DNA of 64,000 bases, taken from assembly GCF_900103505.1 (NCBI RefSeq), contig NZ_FNIA01000003.1, positions 186,001 to 250,000 of the forward strand, read 5' to 3'. The notes below the pieces were generated by a model. That model did no database searches. It saw only the letters and a program-made list of their open reading frames with translations, and was not told the DNA's origin. Positions 40,911-47,273 of the stretch are shown here, one piece after another. Source of the stretch: Haloarchaeobius iranensis (GTDB lineage: Archaea; Halobacteriota; Halobacteria; Halobacteriales; Natrialbaceae). Position numbers and translations under genes: made by a program. Numbering within the stretch: the stretch's first letter is position 1; every line of letters begins with the position of its first letter.

Positions 40911-43226
40911 TCAGGCGTGTCGCTCGCGCTCCTCGTCCGCAACCGCGCCGCCGTAGGCGTCACAGAGCGGGACGAGCGCGTCGCCGAGAGCGCGCATGCA
41001 CTGGCCCGGGGAGTGGAAGCCGCAGTCGTCGGCGACGGCCGACCAGTCGTGGGCCTGGAGCGCGCGCTCGACCAGGACCCGCTCCTGGCGGTCGGTCAGG
41101 TCGACCTCGTGGTCGGGGTCGACGAGGTGTTTGACGACGAGGTCCCTGAAGGGGGTCGGGTCCACGTCGAACAGCCCGGTGCCGTAGGCCGCACCCGCGA
41201 CCATCCGCCACTCGTGCTCGGAGAGCGCGAGGTCCAGGTCGCCGTCGCAGGCCGCCAGCGAGGCGCGCACCTCGTCCGGGTCGGCATCGTCGAGCGCGTC
41301 GGTGAGCTGGCCCCCGACGCGGCGGGCGAACCAGTCGCCGTGACGGTCCGCGAGGGCCGCCCCGACCGGCGAGCAGGGGTCGAGCATGACGACCGAGTAC
41401 TGGCCGCTCACGTCGTTCCGGGTGGTGGAGTAGTGCACGACGGCGTAGTCGTTGCGCGCCCAGAACCGGACGAGCCGGGCGGTCGCGCCGTAGGCGACGC
41501 CGAGCCAGTCCACGTCGTCGGCGAACTCGGCCCGGACCTCGTCGAGCAGGTACGAGCCCAGTCCGGACGAGCGGACCGCGTGATGCGTGGCGATGCGGAC
41601 GACGCGGTAGCCGACGGGTGCAGCGGCGGCCTCGTCCCGGACCTGACTCACCAGCACGTCCGGGATCATGTTCCCCCGGATGCGGTCACCCTCGTACATG
41701 CCGGCCGCCGTCTCGTCGTCGAGGCCGCCCTCGCGGGCGAGCAGGGCGACGCTGACGACGTGGCCCCCGTGGGTGAGTGCCCGTACCGTCAGGTTCGGCG
41801 CGTCGAGCAGTCGGGCGAGGTCGTCCGGCTCGGTGCGGTAGTGGGCGAGCACAAGCAGGCCGAACGTCTCCCGCAGGAGCGTGGGGTCTTCGAGCAGGTC
41901 GTCGCCCTCGACGCGCCCGTAGCTGACCGAGTCCGGGGTGGCGTCGGCGACGACCTGTTCGACCGGCGGCCGCGCGTCGAGCCCGAGCGCATCGAACGAC
42001 CAGACCTCGACCGGGTCGCCCGCCGCGTAGCGGATGGGCTCGGCGAGTCGGCACTCGCGGACCTCGTGGTCGCTCCCGTCGAGGTGCTCGCGGAAGCGCA
42101 CCGAGAAGCCACGCCCAGCGCCCTCGTAGCCGTGGACGGTGGACGCGTAGGCGACGCGGTCCGCGTCGAGCGTCGCGTCGAGCAGCCGCACCGAGAGCGC
42201 GGCGGCCTCGTCGACGACGAGCAGGTCCGGCTCCGCAGCCGACTCGGCGGCGACGCGCGGCGGTTCGTACCGGACCGCGCCCCCGCTCGCCGCCACGAGG
42301 TGCGCGTTCTCGTCGGGGTGGCCGCCTGCTGCGTCGAGCGTCGCGAGCAGTTCGCGGGCGCGGTCGAACACCTCCGCCGCGTTCCGACGGTTCGGTGCGG
42401 TGACCAGCACGTCCAGCCCGTCGGCGGCCGCCGCGCCCGCGGCCAGGCCCGCCGCACTGGACTTGCCGCGCCCGCGGTCGGACCCGACCACGAGGGCGCG
42501 CCGGTCACCGTCGCAATCGCCGTCCGTTCCCGCATCTGTCGGGCGGTCACGGGCGATGAACTCGAAGTCGTGGACCGCCTCGACCTGGTCGGTTGTCAGG
42601 CACGCCGCGTACGCCTCGGTGGGGAACCCGTGCTCGACCGGGATGGCGAGCCCGTCGTCCGGCTCGCGGCCGTCGACCAGGCGCGGCGCGGGGTCCGTCA
42701 GGCCGTCGTCAACGACCCGCGTGCCGTCCGCATCGCCGGCCGCGCCGACCGCGACGATACCGATGCCCGGGTGTGCGCGTAGGCTCTCGACGAACCGGCG
42801 GCGGAACCGTCCCGACACGTCCTCGACGCCGAACGGCGGCACGGCGAGCCCCTCGTCGAAGCCGTCGCGCCGGTCCGGCCAGTCGTCGAGGGGCGGGGCG
42901 AGCAGCACGAGCAGGCCGCCGCCGTCGACCGCCCCGACCACCTGCCCGAGCGCGTTCGGCCGGAGCGTGTCGTGGGCGTCGTAGACGACCGCCGAGAGGG
43001 TCGTGCCGAGTAGCGACGACGCACGGCTCGGCTCGGCCTGTTGGCACGCGAGGGCGTCGCGGTCGCTCACGAGCGCGGTGTCGGAGACGCCGACCGCGAC
43101 CGCGTCGAGCACGGCGTCGGCGGCCCGATAGCAGTCCGCGCGCGAGCCGGTCAGCACGAGCAGGCGGCGCTCGTTCGTCGCGTCGGCCTCGGCGAGCAGC
43201 GCACGCGCGACCTCGACTGCGTCCAT
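40911..43226 (-). CDS. tmcA: tRNA(Met)/RNA cytidine N4-acetyltransferase TmcA
   Basis: 771 residues from ATG 43226. N-terminal DUF1726 region, a RecD-like ATPase with Walker A GSDRGRGKSS (~247-256) and Walker B DLLVVDEAAALS, then a GNAT domain (VVRIATHHAVRSSGLGSYLL near 541-560), and a C-terminal tRNA-binding part. Makes ac4C with ATP and acetyl-CoA in tRNA-Met and, in some archaea, many rRNA sites. Single gene; its 5' end is 270 bp from rpl7ae in the opposite direction. Confidence 0.93.
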   Translation of the reverse strand: MDAVEVARALLAEADATNERRLLVLTGSRADCYRAADAVLDAVAVGVSDTALVSDRDALACQQAEPSRASSLLGTTLSAVVYDAHDTLRPNALGQVVGAVDGGGLLVLLAPPLDDWPDRRDGFDEGLAVPPFGVEDVSGRFRRRFVESLRAHPGIGIVAVGAAGDADGTRVVDDGLTDPAPRLVDGREPDDGLAIPVEHGFPTEAYAACLTTDQVEAVHDFEFIARDRPTDAGTDGDCDGDRRALVVGSDRGRGKSSAAGLAAGAAAADGLDVLVTAPNRRNAAEVFDRARELLATLDAAGGHPDENAHLVAASGGAVRYEPPRVAAESAAEPDLLVVDEAAALSVRLLDATLDADRVAYASTVHGYEGAGRGFSVRFREHLDGSDHEVRECRLAEPIRYAAGDPVEVWSFDALGLDARPPVEQVVADATPDSVSYGRVEGDDLLEDPTLLRETFGLLVLAHYRTEPDDLARLLDAPNLTVRALTHGGHVVSVALLAREGGLDDETAAGMYEGDRIRGNMIPDVLVSQVRDEAAAAPVGYRVVRIATHHAVRSSGLGSYLLDEVRAEFADDVDWLGVAYGATARLVRFWARNDYAVVHYSTTRNDVSGQYSVVMLDPCSPVGAALADRHGDWFARRVGGQLTDALDDADPDEVRASLAACDGDLDLALSEHEWRMVAGAAYGTGLFDVDPTPFRDLVVKHLVDPDHEVDLTDRQERVLVERALQAHDWSAVADDCGFHSPGQCMRALGDALVPLCDAYGGAVADEERERHA

Positions 43227-43334
43227 ACAGCCGCGTGGGGCCCCGAAGGACAGGGGCGTTTCGGTCCCGCGCCGGTCGGTGGGTGCGGTTTCACCCGTGC
43301 CCCGTAGTCTCACACGCCCGGCGCTTTGAACACC

Positions 43335-43342
43335 CTTATAAG
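43335..43342 (+). promoter_or_regulatory. TATA box of the rpl7ae operon
   Basis: cttataag in GC-rich DNA. Start site expected near 43363-43367, which leaves ~130 nt of leader before rpl7ae, long for a haloarchaeal mRNA. Confidence 0.65.
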
Positions 43343-43364
43343 GTGGGCCGGGCTACGATTGTAC

Positions 43365-43496
43365 TACACCCTACGCGGGGTTGATGATGCTCCTAGCCCC
43401 ACAGGATTCCGACCGTCGGACCCAGCTGACGGTCATGCGGGCCCGACCCGCGACGGCAGGGGAGCGCGAGCCCACGTGTAGGAGAGGTGAACAACC
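43365..43496 (+). promoter_or_regulatory. Structured rpl7ae leader with box C/D-like motifs
   Basis: Inferred 5' leader. tgatga at 43382-43387 (box C) and ctga at 43426-43429 (box D) are 38 nt apart, the format of a box C/D RNA or kink-turn that L7Ae binds. There is also a perfect gaccgtc/gacggtc stem (43411-43417 with 43427-43433), a gcggg/cccgc stem (43437-43451), and a GGAGAGGTGA ribosome-binding sequence before the ATG. No good terminal stem flanks C and D. Either L7Ae autoregulation or a guide RNA is possible. Confidence 0.5.
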
Positions 43497-43856
43497 ATGG
43501 CAGTCTACGTAACCAAAGAAATCCCAGCCGACCTCCAAGAGGACGCCCTCGAGGCCCTCGAGGTCGCACGAGACACAGGTAGCGTGAAGAAAGGAACGAA
43601 CGAGACGACGAAGGCCGTCGAGCGCGGCAACGCCGAGCTCATCTTCGTCGCGGAAGACGTCCAGCCCGAGGAGATCGTCATGCACCTCCCCGAGCTGGCC
43701 GACGAGAAAGGTATCCCGGTCGTCTTCATCGAGACCCAGGACGACGTCGGCCACGCGGCCGGCCTCGAAGTCGGGAGCGCCGCGGCCGCCGTCGTCGACG
43801 CCGGCGAGGCCTCGACGGACGTCGAGGACATCGCAGGCAAGCTCGAGGACCTTTAG
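43497..43856 (+). CDS. rpl7ae: Ribosomal protein eL8 / L7Ae (kink-turn binding)
   Basis: 119 residues. Conserved RNA-binding loop [23 protein letters not shown] and the downstream [15 protein letters not shown] region. Part of the 50S subunit, box C/D and H/ACA guide RNPs, and archaeal RNase P. First gene of an operon with eS28, eL24 and Ndk; the leader probably contains a site for its own product. GAGGT at 43857-43861 is the ribosome-binding site for rps28e. Confidence 0.96.
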
Positions 43857-43865
43857 AGGTAATCC

Positions 43866-44090
43866 ATGAGTGCCGAAGAGTCCGAAGACGGCGCGACCCC
43901 CGCGGAAGTCATCGAGATAGTCGGCAAGACCGGCATGCACGGTGAAGCCATGCAGGTCAAGTGCCGCATCCGCGAAGGGGAGAATCAGGGTCGAATCATC
44001 ACGCGCAACTGCCTCGGCCCGGTCCGCGAGGGCGACATCCTGCAGCTGCGGGAGACCGCTCGCGAGGCCGACTCCATCGGAGGACAATAA
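43866..44090 (+). CDS. rps28e: 30S ribosomal protein eS28
   Basis: 74 residues with [38 protein letters not shown] and [19 protein letters not shown], the OB-fold eS28 pattern. Near the mRNA exit side of the 30S head. One-base overlap with rpl24e. Confidence 0.96.
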
Positions 44091-44296
44091 TGGTGACGAC
44101 GCGCGACTGTGAGTACTGCGGCGACGAGATCACGCCCGGAACGGGGACCATGTTCGTCCACACGGACGGCAAGACGGTCCACTACTGTTCCGCGAAGTGT
44201 GAGAAGAACGCCAACCTCGGCCGCGAGCCCCGGGACCTCGAGTGGACAGAGGCCGGTGCCGGCGTCTCCGAGCGGCAGGAGGACGACGAGGAATGA
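44090..44296 (+). CDS. rpl24e: 50S ribosomal protein eL24
   Basis: 68 residues. Zinc-binding [13 protein letters not shown] and [20 protein letters not shown] give the four cysteines of a treble clef. C-terminal acidic tail. Makes intersubunit contact in the 50S. ATG shares one base with rps28e stop; overlaps ndk by ATGA. Confidence 0.95.
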
Positions 44297-44757
44297 GCGA
44301 GCGCGAGCGCACCTTCGTCATGGTCAAGCCCGACGGCGTCCAGCGCGGCCTCACCGGGGAGATCATCTCCCGCTTCGAGGACCGCGGCCTGAAGCTGGTC
44401 GGCGCGAAGTTCATGCAGATCGACCAGGACCTCGCCGAGGAGCACTACGGCGAGCACGAGGGCAAGCCGTTCTTCGACGGCCTCGTCGAGTTCATCACCT
44501 CCGGTCCCGTCATGGCAATGGTCTGGGAGGGCGACGACGCCATCCGCCAGGTCCGTCACATGATGGGCGAGACCGACCCCGCCGAGTCCGCTCCGGGCAC
44601 CATCCGCGGTGACTTCGGGCTGGACCTCGGCCGCAACGTCATCCACGGCTCGGACCACGAGGACCCCGGGTCGAACGAGCGCGAGATCGACCTGTTCTTC
44701 GACGAGGACGAGCTCGTCGACTACGAGAAGGTCGACGAAGGCTGGCTGTACGAGTAA
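44293..44757 (+). CDS. ndk: Nucleoside diphosphate kinase
   Basis: 154 residues. [21 protein letters not shown] near the start, active-site histidine in [20 protein letters not shown], and the C-terminal [10 protein letters not shown] helix. Transfers gamma-phosphate between NTPs and NDPs via phosphohistidine. Last gene of the eL8-eS28-eL24 operon, a conserved archaeal arrangement. Confidence 0.96.
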
Positions 44758-44861
44758 CCCCTTCACTTCTTTCGCGGTTCGTCACGGCGCTGGAGCGGCA
44801 GCGCTCGCCCGTCGACCCTGCCGCCCCACGGAAAGAAACTTTACCCGTTCCGTCCGTTCGT

Positions 44862-47273
44862 GTGCGCATCGTGAACAAAGAGACGACGAGACGCGCGGTC
44901 CTCTCGGCCGTCCTCGGGGCGGGGGTCGGGGGGATGGCGCTGACAGACGCCCGGTCGTACCTGGAACGGTTCGCCCCGGGCTCGGGAACGGTGTGGGGCG
45001 CAGCGAACCGGAACGCGGCCGGACGGGTCGAGAGCCCGTACGGTGCGGCGACGGTCAGCTACGACGACGACCACGTCCCCCACGTGGAAGCCGACGACGA
45101 GCGAGCGGTGTACTTCGCGGTCGGCTACTGCCACGGAGCGGACCGCCTCTTCCAGATGGACCTCTACCGACGGCTGATGGCGGGCGAGCTCTCGGCGGTC
45201 GTCGGGGACGTGGCGGTCGACTCCGACGTGTTCCACCGGCAGCTCGACTTCGCGGGGGCTGCCGAGGCGACGTGGGAGCGCGCCGAGGGCACCCCGACCG
45301 GCGACGTGGTCAAGGCGTACGTCGACGGGGTGAACCGGGCGCTTGAGCAGGAGTCGACGCCGCTGGAGTACCGGCTGCTGTCGTTCGAGCCGCGCGAGTG
45401 GACGCCCACGGCGAGCCTGCTCATCTCGAAGCAGATCTCGTGGGGGCTCACGGGCTCGTTCCGCACGCTTCGGAGGGCGCTGGCGCGGGAGCGGCTCGGG
45501 AGCGAGGCGACCGAGGAACTGTACCCCCGACCCATGGACCACGGCGTCCCCATCATCCGCGAGTCTGGTGGTGGGGCGTCCGTCGTGACGGGTTCGGCAG
45601 ACGCCGCGACGCCCGAACCGGGGCTCGTCTCCTGGCTCGAATCGTTCGGGACGGACCCCGGGATCGGTTCGAACTCGTGGGTGCTCTCCGGGGAGCAGAC
45701 CGCCTCGGGCGACCCTATCGTCGCCAACGACCCGCACCTCAACCTCACCGTGCCGCCGGTCTGGTACGAGCAGCACGTCGTCGGCCCGGACCCGCTCGAC
45801 GTGCGCGGCGTCTGCTTCCCCGGCGTCCCCTTCGTCATCATCGGCCAGAACCACGCCGGGGCGTGGGGCTTCACCAACGCCGGGGCGGACGTCATCGACT
45901 TCTACACGTACGAGACGACGGGCGACGGGAGCTACCGCTACGGCGAGGAGACCCGGGAGTTCGACACGCGGACAGAGACGGTCGAGGTGGCCGACGGCGA
46001 GGACGTCGCGGTGACGGTAAAGCGGTCCGTCCACGGCTCGGTGCTCACGCAGTACCCCGACGGCGACGACTTCGAGCAGGCCGACGAACTCGGCGTCGCG
46101 TGGACTGGGCTCTCGGCGACGCGGACCGTCGAGGCGGTCCGCGAACTCAACGTGGCTGACGGACTCGAGGAGGCGGCGGCGGCCATCAGGAAGTTCGACG
46201 AGCCGACACAGAACTTCGTCTACGCAGACGCGGACGGGGACACCTACTACTGGGTGACCGGGCAGATACCCATCCGAACGACGGACGGCGAGCCGGTGCA
46301 GGGCACCCGCGTCTTCGACGGCTCCGCCCGCGAGGGCGAGTGGGGGCCGGGCTACACGCCGTTCGGTGAGTCTTCGTGGGAAGGGTTCGTCCCCTACGAG
46401 GAGAAGCCCGGCGTCCGGAACCCGGACTACCTCGCGACGGCGAACCAGCGGCTCACGGACGACCCCGAGCACTACCTCTCGGAGGGGTACGCGCCGCCGT
46501 TCCGGGGCGGTCGCATCTACGACCGGCTCGACGAGCGCGCGGCGAGCGACGAGTCGATGGACGCGGCGTTCGCTCGCGACGTACAGCTCGATGTCGTCGA
46601 CGGGCGGTACGAGCTGTTCCGTCCCATCGTCGGGGAGGCCGTCGAGGAAGGACTCCCCGTGATGGTCGACGTGGACCCACCCGTCTCACCGGCCGCGCTG
46701 CTCGACTGGGACGGTGGGATGCGCCCCGGCGACCCCGAACCGCTCCTGTTCGAGCACTGGCTCCGCGCCTTCCGCGACCGGACGTTCGAGGCCGCGTTCG
46801 CCGACGCGGGCCTTCCGGAGGATTTCTCGAAGCCGAACCTGTGGGTCCTGGGGACGCTCCCGCCGGACAGTGAGTGGTTCGACGGCGACCGGGCGGCCGT
46901 CGCCGCCGCCGCGATGAGTGACGCGCTCGAGACGCTCTCGGACGAGGGCTGGGAGGACTACGGCGACTGGAACCGGGTCCGCTTCGAGCACCCGTTCGAC
47001 CAGCCGTTCCTGAACTACGACCAGCTCCGGACGTCGGGCTCGCCGGGCACGGTTCGGAACTTCCGGAGCGAGTCCTCGCGGGGGGCGAGCTGGCGCATGG
47101 TCGCCACGTTCGACGGGGAGTCCCGGGCCATCCTCCCGGGTGGCAACTCGGGCGACTACTTCTCCGACCACTACGACGACCAGCTCCGCGACTGGGCGGA
47201 CGGCGAGTACAAGTCGATGGCGCGGACGGTGCCCGACGGCGTCGACGTGACCTTCGAGGAGGGAGACGGATGA
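44862..47273 (+). CDS. Penicillin acylase family (Ntn) amidohydrolase, Tat-exported
   Basis: 803 residues. Start is GTG 44862 or the GTG three codons later. TTRRAVLSAVLG is a Tat-type signal. Alpha-chain HVPHVEADDERAVYFAVGYCHGADRLFQMD, then the autocleavage site GIG|SNSW with Ser270 as nucleophile, and beta-chain VANDPHLNLTVPPVWYEQHVV. Cleaves amide bonds, perhaps acyl-homoserine lactones or acylated amines; the substrate is not known. A small membrane protein gene follows by ATGA overlap. Confidence 0.9.
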   Translation: MRIVNKETTRRAVLSAVLGAGVGGMALTDARSYLERFAPGSGTVWGAANRNAAGRVESPYGAATVSYDDDHVPHVEADDERAVYFAVGYCHGADRLFQMDLYRRLMAGELSAVVGDVAVDSDVFHRQLDFAGAAEATWERAEGTPTGDVVKAYVDGVNRALEQESTPLEYRLLSFEPREWTPTASLLISKQISWGLTGSFRTLRRALARERLGSEATEELYPRPMDHGVPIIRESGGGASVVTGSADAATPEPGLVSWLESFGTDPGIGSNSWVLSGEQTASGDPIVANDPHLNLTVPPVWYEQHVVGPDPLDVRGVCFPGVPFVIIGQNHAGAWGFTNAGADVIDFYTYETTGDGSYRYGEETREFDTRTETVEVADGEDVAVTVKRSVHGSVLTQYPDGDDFEQADELGVAWTGLSATRTVEAVRELNVADGLEEAAAAIRKFDEPTQNFVYADADGDTYYWVTGQIPIRTTDGEPVQGTRVFDGSAREGEWGPGYTPFGESSWEGFVPYEEKPGVRNPDYLATANQRLTDDPEHYLSEGYAPPFRGGRIYDRLDERAASDESMDAAFARDVQLDVVDGRYELFRPIVGEAVEEGLPVMVDVDPPVSPAALLDWDGGMRPGDPEPLLFEHWLRAFRDRTFEAAFADAGLPEDFSKPNLWVLGTLPPDSEWFDGDRAAVAAAAMSDALETLSDEGWEDYGDWNRVRFEHPFDQPFLNYDQLRTSGSPGTVRNFRSESSRGASWRMVATFDGESRAILPGGNSGDYFSDHYDDQLRDWADGEYKSMARTVPDGVDVTFEEGDG

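What the first reader, a model, noticed from the sequence alone, without database searches (positions are those of the whole stretch)
43365..43496. Box C/D-like motifs in the leader of the gene for L7Ae itself
The leader of rpl7ae contains UGAUGA and CUGA 38 nt apart, the motifs that L7Ae recognises, together with strong stems and a long (~130 nt) leader. This suggests either autoregulation by L7Ae binding, as reported for other archaea, or a box C/D guide RNA cut from the same transcript. A flanking terminal stem is absent and no C'/D' pair is clear, so the fold is open.
Basis: partly seen in the sequence, partly recalled or inferred. Interest (0 to 1): 0.6.

Follow-up and report, generated by a model that had tools for sequence, protein, structure and literature searches.

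The report
Class-wide kink-turn leader controlling L7Ae
The start of the mRNA for ribosomal protein L7Ae in almost all salt-loving archaea folds into a large conserved RNA structure built around the bend ("kink-turn") that L7Ae itself recognises, most likely so that the protein can turn down its own production; it is an elaborate, uncatalogued version of a control switch known from other archaea.

Summary
The C-box-like UGAUGA (43382-43387) is real and nearly invariant. The "D box" CUGA (43426-43429) is a chance match inside a variable hairpin. The "absent" terminal stem exists: 43370-43380 pairs with 43471-43482. The true partner strand of UGAUGAU is GCGAG (43466-43470). Together they form a long-range kink-turn: U43381·G43470, bulge UGAU, tandem G86·A469/A87·G468, then a 10-bp stem and a variable apical domain. 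Covariation is overwhelming (18 of 21 pairs with double changes, 0/500 shuffles). A covariance model finds one copy, beside rpl7ae, in 277 of 284 genomes of the class, and none in about 200 other genomes of the phylum. Five of the seven misses carry divergent copies. Deep-branching relatives and outgroups have a short k-turn hairpin by the Shine-Dalgarno instead, so the long form arose once. The promoter places the transcript start at the element's 5' end (~43365), and the stem abuts or overlaps the Shine-Dalgarno. Best reading: an L7Ae autoregulatory leader, a new large variant of the switch reported by Daume 2017 and Huang 2019, not in Rfam 15. L7Ae binding and repression are inferred. Unlike the A. 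fulgidus switch, the stem is predicted to be stable without protein.

The parts
43336..43343 (+). TATA-like promoter box TTATAAGG
   Evidence: TATA hexamer starts 28-29 nt before the conserved TACA in 118 of 128 leaders; fixes the start at ~43365
43365..43369 (+). predicted transcript 5' end, conserved UACA(C)
   Evidence: spacing; near-invariant T A C A columns in alignment A1
43370..43380 (+). P1 / C-stem, 5' strand CCUACGCGGGG
   Evidence: pairs with 43471-43482 (A43474 bulged); 97.6% cells paired, 7 of 11 pairs with double changes
43381..43388 (+). Kt-b strand of the kink-turn: U43381 (-1b), bulge L1 UGAU 43382-43385, G43386 (1b), A43387 (2b), U43388 (3b)
   Evidence: U-G-A before the NC stem invariant in the element rows of A2; L1 is 3 nt (CAU/CGU/UGU) in 13 of 128 leaders and 4 nt in the rest
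43389..43398 (+). NC-stem, 5' strand GCUCCUAGCC
   Evidence: pairs with 43455-43465; 7 of 10 pairs with double changes
43400..43406 (+). conserved apical motif CACAGGA (YCAGG(G)A in relatives), function unknown
   Evidence: present in nearly all leaders whatever the length of the apical domain
   Evidence: MFE; absent or different in relatives
43437..43451 (+). variable apical hairpin B
   Evidence: MFE; not conserved
43455..43465 (+). NC-stem, 3' strand
43466..43470 (+). Kt-n strand GCGAG: G43468 (2n), A43469 (1n), G43470 (-1n)
   Evidence: NNGAG in most leaders; 2n = A in about 8 of 128; -1 pair U.G becomes U-A in L077 and L152
43471..43482 (+). P1 / C-stem, 3' strand CCCACGUGUAGG
   Evidence: its end lies 11-18 nt (mode 15) before the start codon
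43485..43490 (+). Shine-Dalgarno-like AGGUGA
   Evidence: sequence; GG of the P1 end is shared with GGAGG in 14 leaders and lies 1-5 nt before (A)GGUG in 94
43497..43856 (+). rpl7ae (ribosomal protein L7Ae/eL8)
   Evidence: NCBIfam TIGR03677, 1.3e-48

Best explanation
The whole leader is a conserved cis-regulatory RNA. Transcription starts at ~43365, at the 5' edge of a long terminal stem (P1). P1 and a second stem are separated by an asymmetric internal loop with the sequence signature of a kink-turn, whose two strands lie about 78 nt apart in this species. Free L7Ae binds the k-turn (inferred), locks the kink and P1, and lowers translation initiation of rpl7ae, because the 3' end of P1 abuts or includes the first GG of the Shine-Dalgarno and the kink swings the apical domain and bound L7Ae towards the ribosome-binding site. 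When rRNA and other targets absorb L7Ae, the leader is free and translation proceeds. Shown here: structure, covariation, k-turn signature, location, distribution, promoter spacing. Inferred: L7Ae binding, the sign of regulation, and the occlusion step.
For: Covariation: 94.3% of cells paired, 14/21 pairs with double changes, 0/500 shuffles, slid controls 34-55%; wider set 92.5%, 18/21 pairs, 113 double-change cells. K-turn: the residues that L7Ae recognition and k-turn folding depend on (G1b, A2b, A1n) are conserved, while 2n tolerates A, which matches a k-turn with A at 2n that A. fulgidus L7Ae binds (PMC3985660). The -1 pair changes U.G to U-A. Mostly 3b = U and 3n = C/U, so by the published rules it should need L7Ae to kink (PMC6298567). 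One copy per genome, at rpl7ae: 277/284 by model, 5 more by alignment, one match in its own genome even at E<=10. Outgroups and three deep lineages have a short SD-proximal k-turn at the same gene, and a tree puts all sampled long forms in one clade, support 99. L7Ae autoregulation through leader k-turns is experimentally supported in Sulfolobus and A. fulgidus (PMC5539422, PMC6298567). In haloarchaea changing the first GG of GGAGGUCA cut expression by 90% (PMC8241225).
Against: No binding or reporter data exist for the full haloarchaeal element. P1 is predicted to form with probability ~1 without protein, so simple folding on binding, as in A. fulgidus, does not explain switching. In most species the AGGUGA part of the Shine-Dalgarno lies 2-3 nt outside P1. 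Most L1 loops have 4 nt rather than 3. The conserved apical CAGG(G)A motif is unexplained.
Confidence: 0.78

Rival explanations
1. The leader is a box C/D guide RNA (or its precursor) cut out of the rpl7ae transcript.
For: UGAUGA enclosed by a terminal stem; in some Haladaptataceae Kt-n reads CUGA exactly (L040, L063, L073). Short RNAs were sequenced from the rpl7ae intergenic region of Haloferax mediterranei (PMC5852579).
Against: The partner strand is NNGAG, not CUGA, in most leaders. No C'/D' pair; the region between the boxes varies from about a dozen to over 100 nt with no conserved guide. No Rfam snoRNA match. Always fused to rpl7ae, with P1 at fixed distance from its start codon.
Confidence: 0.04
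2. A constitutive structured leader: it sets basal translation, mRNA stability or ribosome standby, and any L7Ae binding is incidental.
For: P1 and NC stems are predicted to be stable on their own; haloarchaeal leadered messages are often not SD-dependent (PMC8241225).
Against: Conservation is strongest in the unpaired k-turn nucleotides, which a plain stem would not need. The gene encodes the k-turn-binding protein, and relatives keep a k-turn at the same gene although everything else changed.
Confidence: 0.12
3. The leader is regulated by another product of the operon (S28e or L24e) or by a second ligand at the apical domain.
For: A conserved apical CAGG(G)A motif of unknown function; L7Ae-S28e-L24e-Ndk order conserved.
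Against: S28e is missing from the operon in lineages that keep the k-turn; no similarity of the leader to 23S rRNA beyond chance. The k-turn is the dedicated site of L7Ae-family proteins.
Confidence: 0.06

Closest known systems
l7ae 5'-UTR autoregulatory k-turn of Sulfolobus acidocaldarius (Daume et al. 2017, PMC5539422)
   Same: k-turn in the leader of the same gene, close to the Shine-Dalgarno, implying negative feedback. The paper inspected 121 archaea and named Kt-b/Kt-n strands for Haloferax volcanii.
   Different: There it is a short hairpin. High leader conservation was reported only for Sulfolobales, and the H. volcanii test used only ~50 bp upstream, which by the anatomy here cannot contain the Kt-b strand. 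The haloarchaeal element is ~90-210 nt with an 11-bp C-stem and an apical domain.
A. fulgidus l7ae leader k-turn (Huang, Ashraf and Lilley 2019, PMC6298567)
   Same: k-turn core with bulge plus tandem G.A, and 3b:3n and -1b:-1n sequences that predict dependence on L7Ae.
   Different: The A. fulgidus RNA is unstructured until L7Ae binds; here P1 is predicted stable alone. Bulge is 3 nt (GAU) there, 4 nt (UGAU) in most haloarchaea.
Halobacteria S15 and euryarchaeal eL15 ribosomal leaders (Eckert and Weinberg 2020, PMC7247131)
   Same: Covarying ribosomal-protein leader confined to one archaeal lineage.
   Different: Different gene, ligand and structure; their table lists no L7Ae leader in Halobacteria, and the main text does not mention L7Ae or k-turns.
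Box C/D sRNA
   Same: UGAUGA box, terminal stem, L7Ae-type k-turn.
   Different: No conserved CUGA D box, no C'/D', no guide; fused to an mRNA.

Membership tests
L7Ae autoregulatory l7ae leader (broad, Daume 2017) | located in the 5' UTR of l7ae | tested here: met
   all matches inspected lie directly upstream of rpl7ae; promoter spacing puts the element inside the transcript
L7Ae autoregulatory l7ae leader (broad, Daume 2017) | k-turn: C-stem, bulge, tandem G.A/A.G, NC-stem | tested here: met
   bulge 4 nt in most, 3 nt in several lineages; 2n = A in about 8 of 128
L7Ae autoregulatory l7ae leader (broad, Daume 2017) | Shine-Dalgarno next to or inside the k-turn stem | tested here: met
   P1 ends 11-18 nt before the start codon; GG shared with or 1-5 nt from the SD
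L7Ae autoregulatory l7ae leader (broad, Daume 2017) | bound by L7Ae and represses translation | not testable with these tools
   needs EMSA and reporter assays
A. fulgidus-type folding switch (Huang 2019) | k-turn sequence not expected to fold with ions alone | tested here: met
   3b = U, 3n = C/U and -1 = U.G in most leaders, by the rules in PMC6298567; 3b = C in about 11 leaders is an exception
A. fulgidus-type folding switch (Huang 2019) | stem-loop essentially unstructured without L7Ae | tested here: not met
   P1 probability median 0.997 in the free RNA (prediction); so not filed as this mechanistic type
Box C/D guide sRNA | C box UGAUGA | tested here: met
   43382-43387; UGAUGA or CGAUGA in about 115 of 128 leaders, others carry 3-nt-bulge forms
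Box C/D guide sRNA | D box CUGA closing the same k-turn | tested here: not met
Box C/D guide sRNA | C'/D' boxes and a conserved guide complementary to rRNA or tRNA | tested here: not met
   apical domain varies in length and sequence, no internal boxes seen in the alignments; target complementarity itself not searched
Any Rfam 15 family | covariance-model match | tested here: not met
   none at E<=1 in the window region 42500-45000, none at E<=0.1 in eight related loci

The most novel reading that the evidence does not exclude
The enlarged haloarchaeal leader is not only an L7Ae switch but a two-input element. The conserved apical CAGG(G)A domain reads a second signal, or the leader is released as a stable small RNA that titrates L7Ae in trans. 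Short RNAs from both strands of this intergenic region were reported in Haloferax mediterranei.
Probability: 0.12. Interest if true: 0.72.

Novelty: new variant of a known kind. Interest (0 to 1): 0.52.

Why it matters
Few cis-regulatory RNAs are known in archaea, and structured leaders were thought untypical of haloarchaea. This one appears in practically every haloarchaeal genome searched, has strong covariation support, and is absent from Rfam 15. It shows a known short protein-binding hairpin being rebuilt once into a large long-range architecture that keeps only the protein-contacting nucleotides. It also indicates that the published ~50-bp Haloferax test construct lacked half of the real k-turn. 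The prediction can be tested directly in genetically tractable Haloferax volcanii.

Tried and rejected
Upstream ORF starting at the AUGAUG in Kt-b: the frame relative to rpl7ae is not kept (56/36/29) and 7 leaders have no AUG. Mimicry of 23S rRNA: best local alignment score 13 against shuffled mean 14.9. Alternative pair U82-A469 drawn by RNAalifold: position 82 is C in about 18 of 128 leaders while A469 stays, so it does not covary; the G.A pairing holds in the rows examined. Additional copies in the same genome: none at E<=10. Exact placement of the H. mediterranei small RNAs was not possible: none of 15 genomes of one related genus searched had a match at the reported coordinates.

Full report
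Setting. The window is from a haloarchaeon close to Haloarchaeobius (L7Ae 100% identical in Haloarchaeobius sp. FL176). rpl7ae (43497-43856) is followed by genes for S28e, L24e and nucleoside-diphosphate kinase; tmcA lies divergently upstream.

Observation. UGAUGA at 43382-43387 and CUGA at 43426-43429 are present, 38 nt apart. Together they occur within 60 nt in only 0.4% of dinucleotide shuffles of the leader, but UGAUGA carries that rarity (3%), CUGA does not (42%). The full leader folds far better than shuffles (z = -3.8).

Comparative anatomy. Leaders of 80 named haloarchaea show two conserved blocks, 5' CCUNNNCGGGGUUGAUGAUGCUCCUAGCC-N-CACAGGA and 3' GGCAGGGGAGC-NN-GAG-CC...AGG-SD, separated by about a dozen to over 100 variable nucleotides. 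On a MAFFT alignment of 38 leaders the two-helix structure has 94.3% paired cells and 14 of 21 pairs with changes on both sides; none of 500 shuffles reaches either value and slid versions pair 34-55%. RNAalifold finds the same helices unaided. A wider set with divergent families, aligned to the model and so leaning towards it, gives 18 of 21 pairs and 113 double-change cells.

The internal loop. Between the helices lie 5'-U-UGAU-GA-U and 3'-NNGAG. Read as a kink-turn: -1 pair U43381.G43470 (U-A in L077 and L152), bulge L1 = UGAU, 1b.1n = G43386.A43469, 2b.2n = A43387.G43468, 3b = U43388. In several lineages the bulge is the canonical 3 nt (CAU, CGU, UGU). UGA on the bulged strand and A at 1n are conserved throughout the aligned rows, while 2n is A in about 8 of 128 leaders. 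These are the residues expected of an L7Ae-type k-turn, and a k-turn with A at 2n has been crystallised with L7Ae (PMC3985660). The published folding rules (PMC6298567) predict that most of these k-turns need protein to kink.

Distribution. A covariance model (R1) finds exactly one copy in 277 of 284 genomes of the class. Five of the seven misses have divergent copies (L154, L155, L159, L160, L163). In about 200 other genomes of the phylum it finds none. The true exceptions (L164, L165, L166) and most outgroup genomes inspected carry instead a short hairpin with k-turn strands by the Shine-Dalgarno, for example CGU-GAU-GA-AGCGC-GCUA-GCGCU-GA-ACG-AGGUGA in L165 (read partly by eye in the outgroups). 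A tree of L7Ae+S28e+L24e puts all sampled long-form species in one clade (support 99), with the three short-form lineages branching before it. The long form therefore most simply arose once from a short ancestral k-turn.

Transcription and translation. The TATA box starts 28-29 nt before the conserved UACA in 118 of 128 leaders, so the transcript should begin at the element's 5' edge, about 43365 here; this is inferred, not mapped. P1 ends 11-18 nt (mode 15) before the start codon. In 14 leaders its terminal GG is the first GG of the haloarchaeal Shine-Dalgarno GGAGG, and in 94 it lies 1-5 nt before (A)GGUG. Replacing that GG in another haloarchaeal leader cost 90% of expression (PMC8241225). 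P1 is predicted to be formed even without protein (median probability 0.997; standard RNA parameters at 37 C).

Mechanism. The best-supported reading is an autoregulatory leader: L7Ae binds the k-turn, locks the kink and P1, and blocks initiation at the adjoining Shine-Dalgarno. Structure and signature are shown; binding, repression and the occlusion step are inferred from position and from published work in Sulfolobus and A. fulgidus. Because P1 is stable alone, the A. fulgidus mechanism (unstructured until bound) probably does not apply as it stands. A kink that folds the apical domain and L7Ae back over the ribosome-binding site is my proposal.

Known work. Daume et al. 2017 proposed L7Ae feedback for most archaea, listed Haloferax volcanii Kt strands, but saw high leader conservation only in Sulfolobales and tested ~50 bp of the H. 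volcanii leader, which by the anatomy here lacks the real Kt-b. Huang et al. 2019 does not mention haloarchaea. Eckert and Weinberg 2020 list a Halobacteria S15 leader but no L7Ae one. Rfam 15 has no match. Babski et al. 2016 judged structured leaders untypical of haloarchaea. Two short RNAs were reported from the rpl7ae intergenic region of H. mediterranei, one on each strand (PMC5852579); their exact position relative to the element could not be checked. The library searched holds only open-licence papers, so a description elsewhere cannot be excluded.

Verdict. The finding is real, ordinary in kind (a ribosomal-protein leader) but a new and large variant, with strong comparative support and a clear test.

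Noticed in passing
window 43400-43406: A conserved apical motif (YCAGG(G)A) just inside the NC-stem is kept in nearly all leaders although the rest of the apical domain varies; no partner or ligand was found.
   Followed up: partly
L164, L165, L166: The three deep-branching haloarchaeal lineages with the short k-turn have no rps28e detectable between rpl7ae and rpl24e, unlike all other loci examined.
   Followed up: partly
window 40911-43226 (minus strand): tmcA (tRNA(Met) cytidine acetyltransferase) is divergently adjacent to rpl7ae here and detectable upstream in 50 of 78 related loci.
   Followed up: partly
Haloferax mediterranei 1913216-1913270 (literature): Small RNAs HM10_V (42 nt, minus) and HM9_V (27 nt, plus) were reported in the HFX_2748(rpl7AE)/HFX_2747 intergenic region, so the leader region yields short RNAs on both strands (PMC5852579).
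   Followed up: partly
plasmid record CP031304.1, 401758-401887: The element and a 50S L7ae gene lie on a 987-kb Natrinema thermotolerans record filed as a plasmid; an essential ribosomal operon there suggests a second chromosome or a misfiled piece.
   Followed up: no
L167-L171, L174, L177, L181: These leaders have A instead of G at k-turn position 2n (GCAAG or GAAAG), a naturally rare k-turn type.
   Followed up: yes
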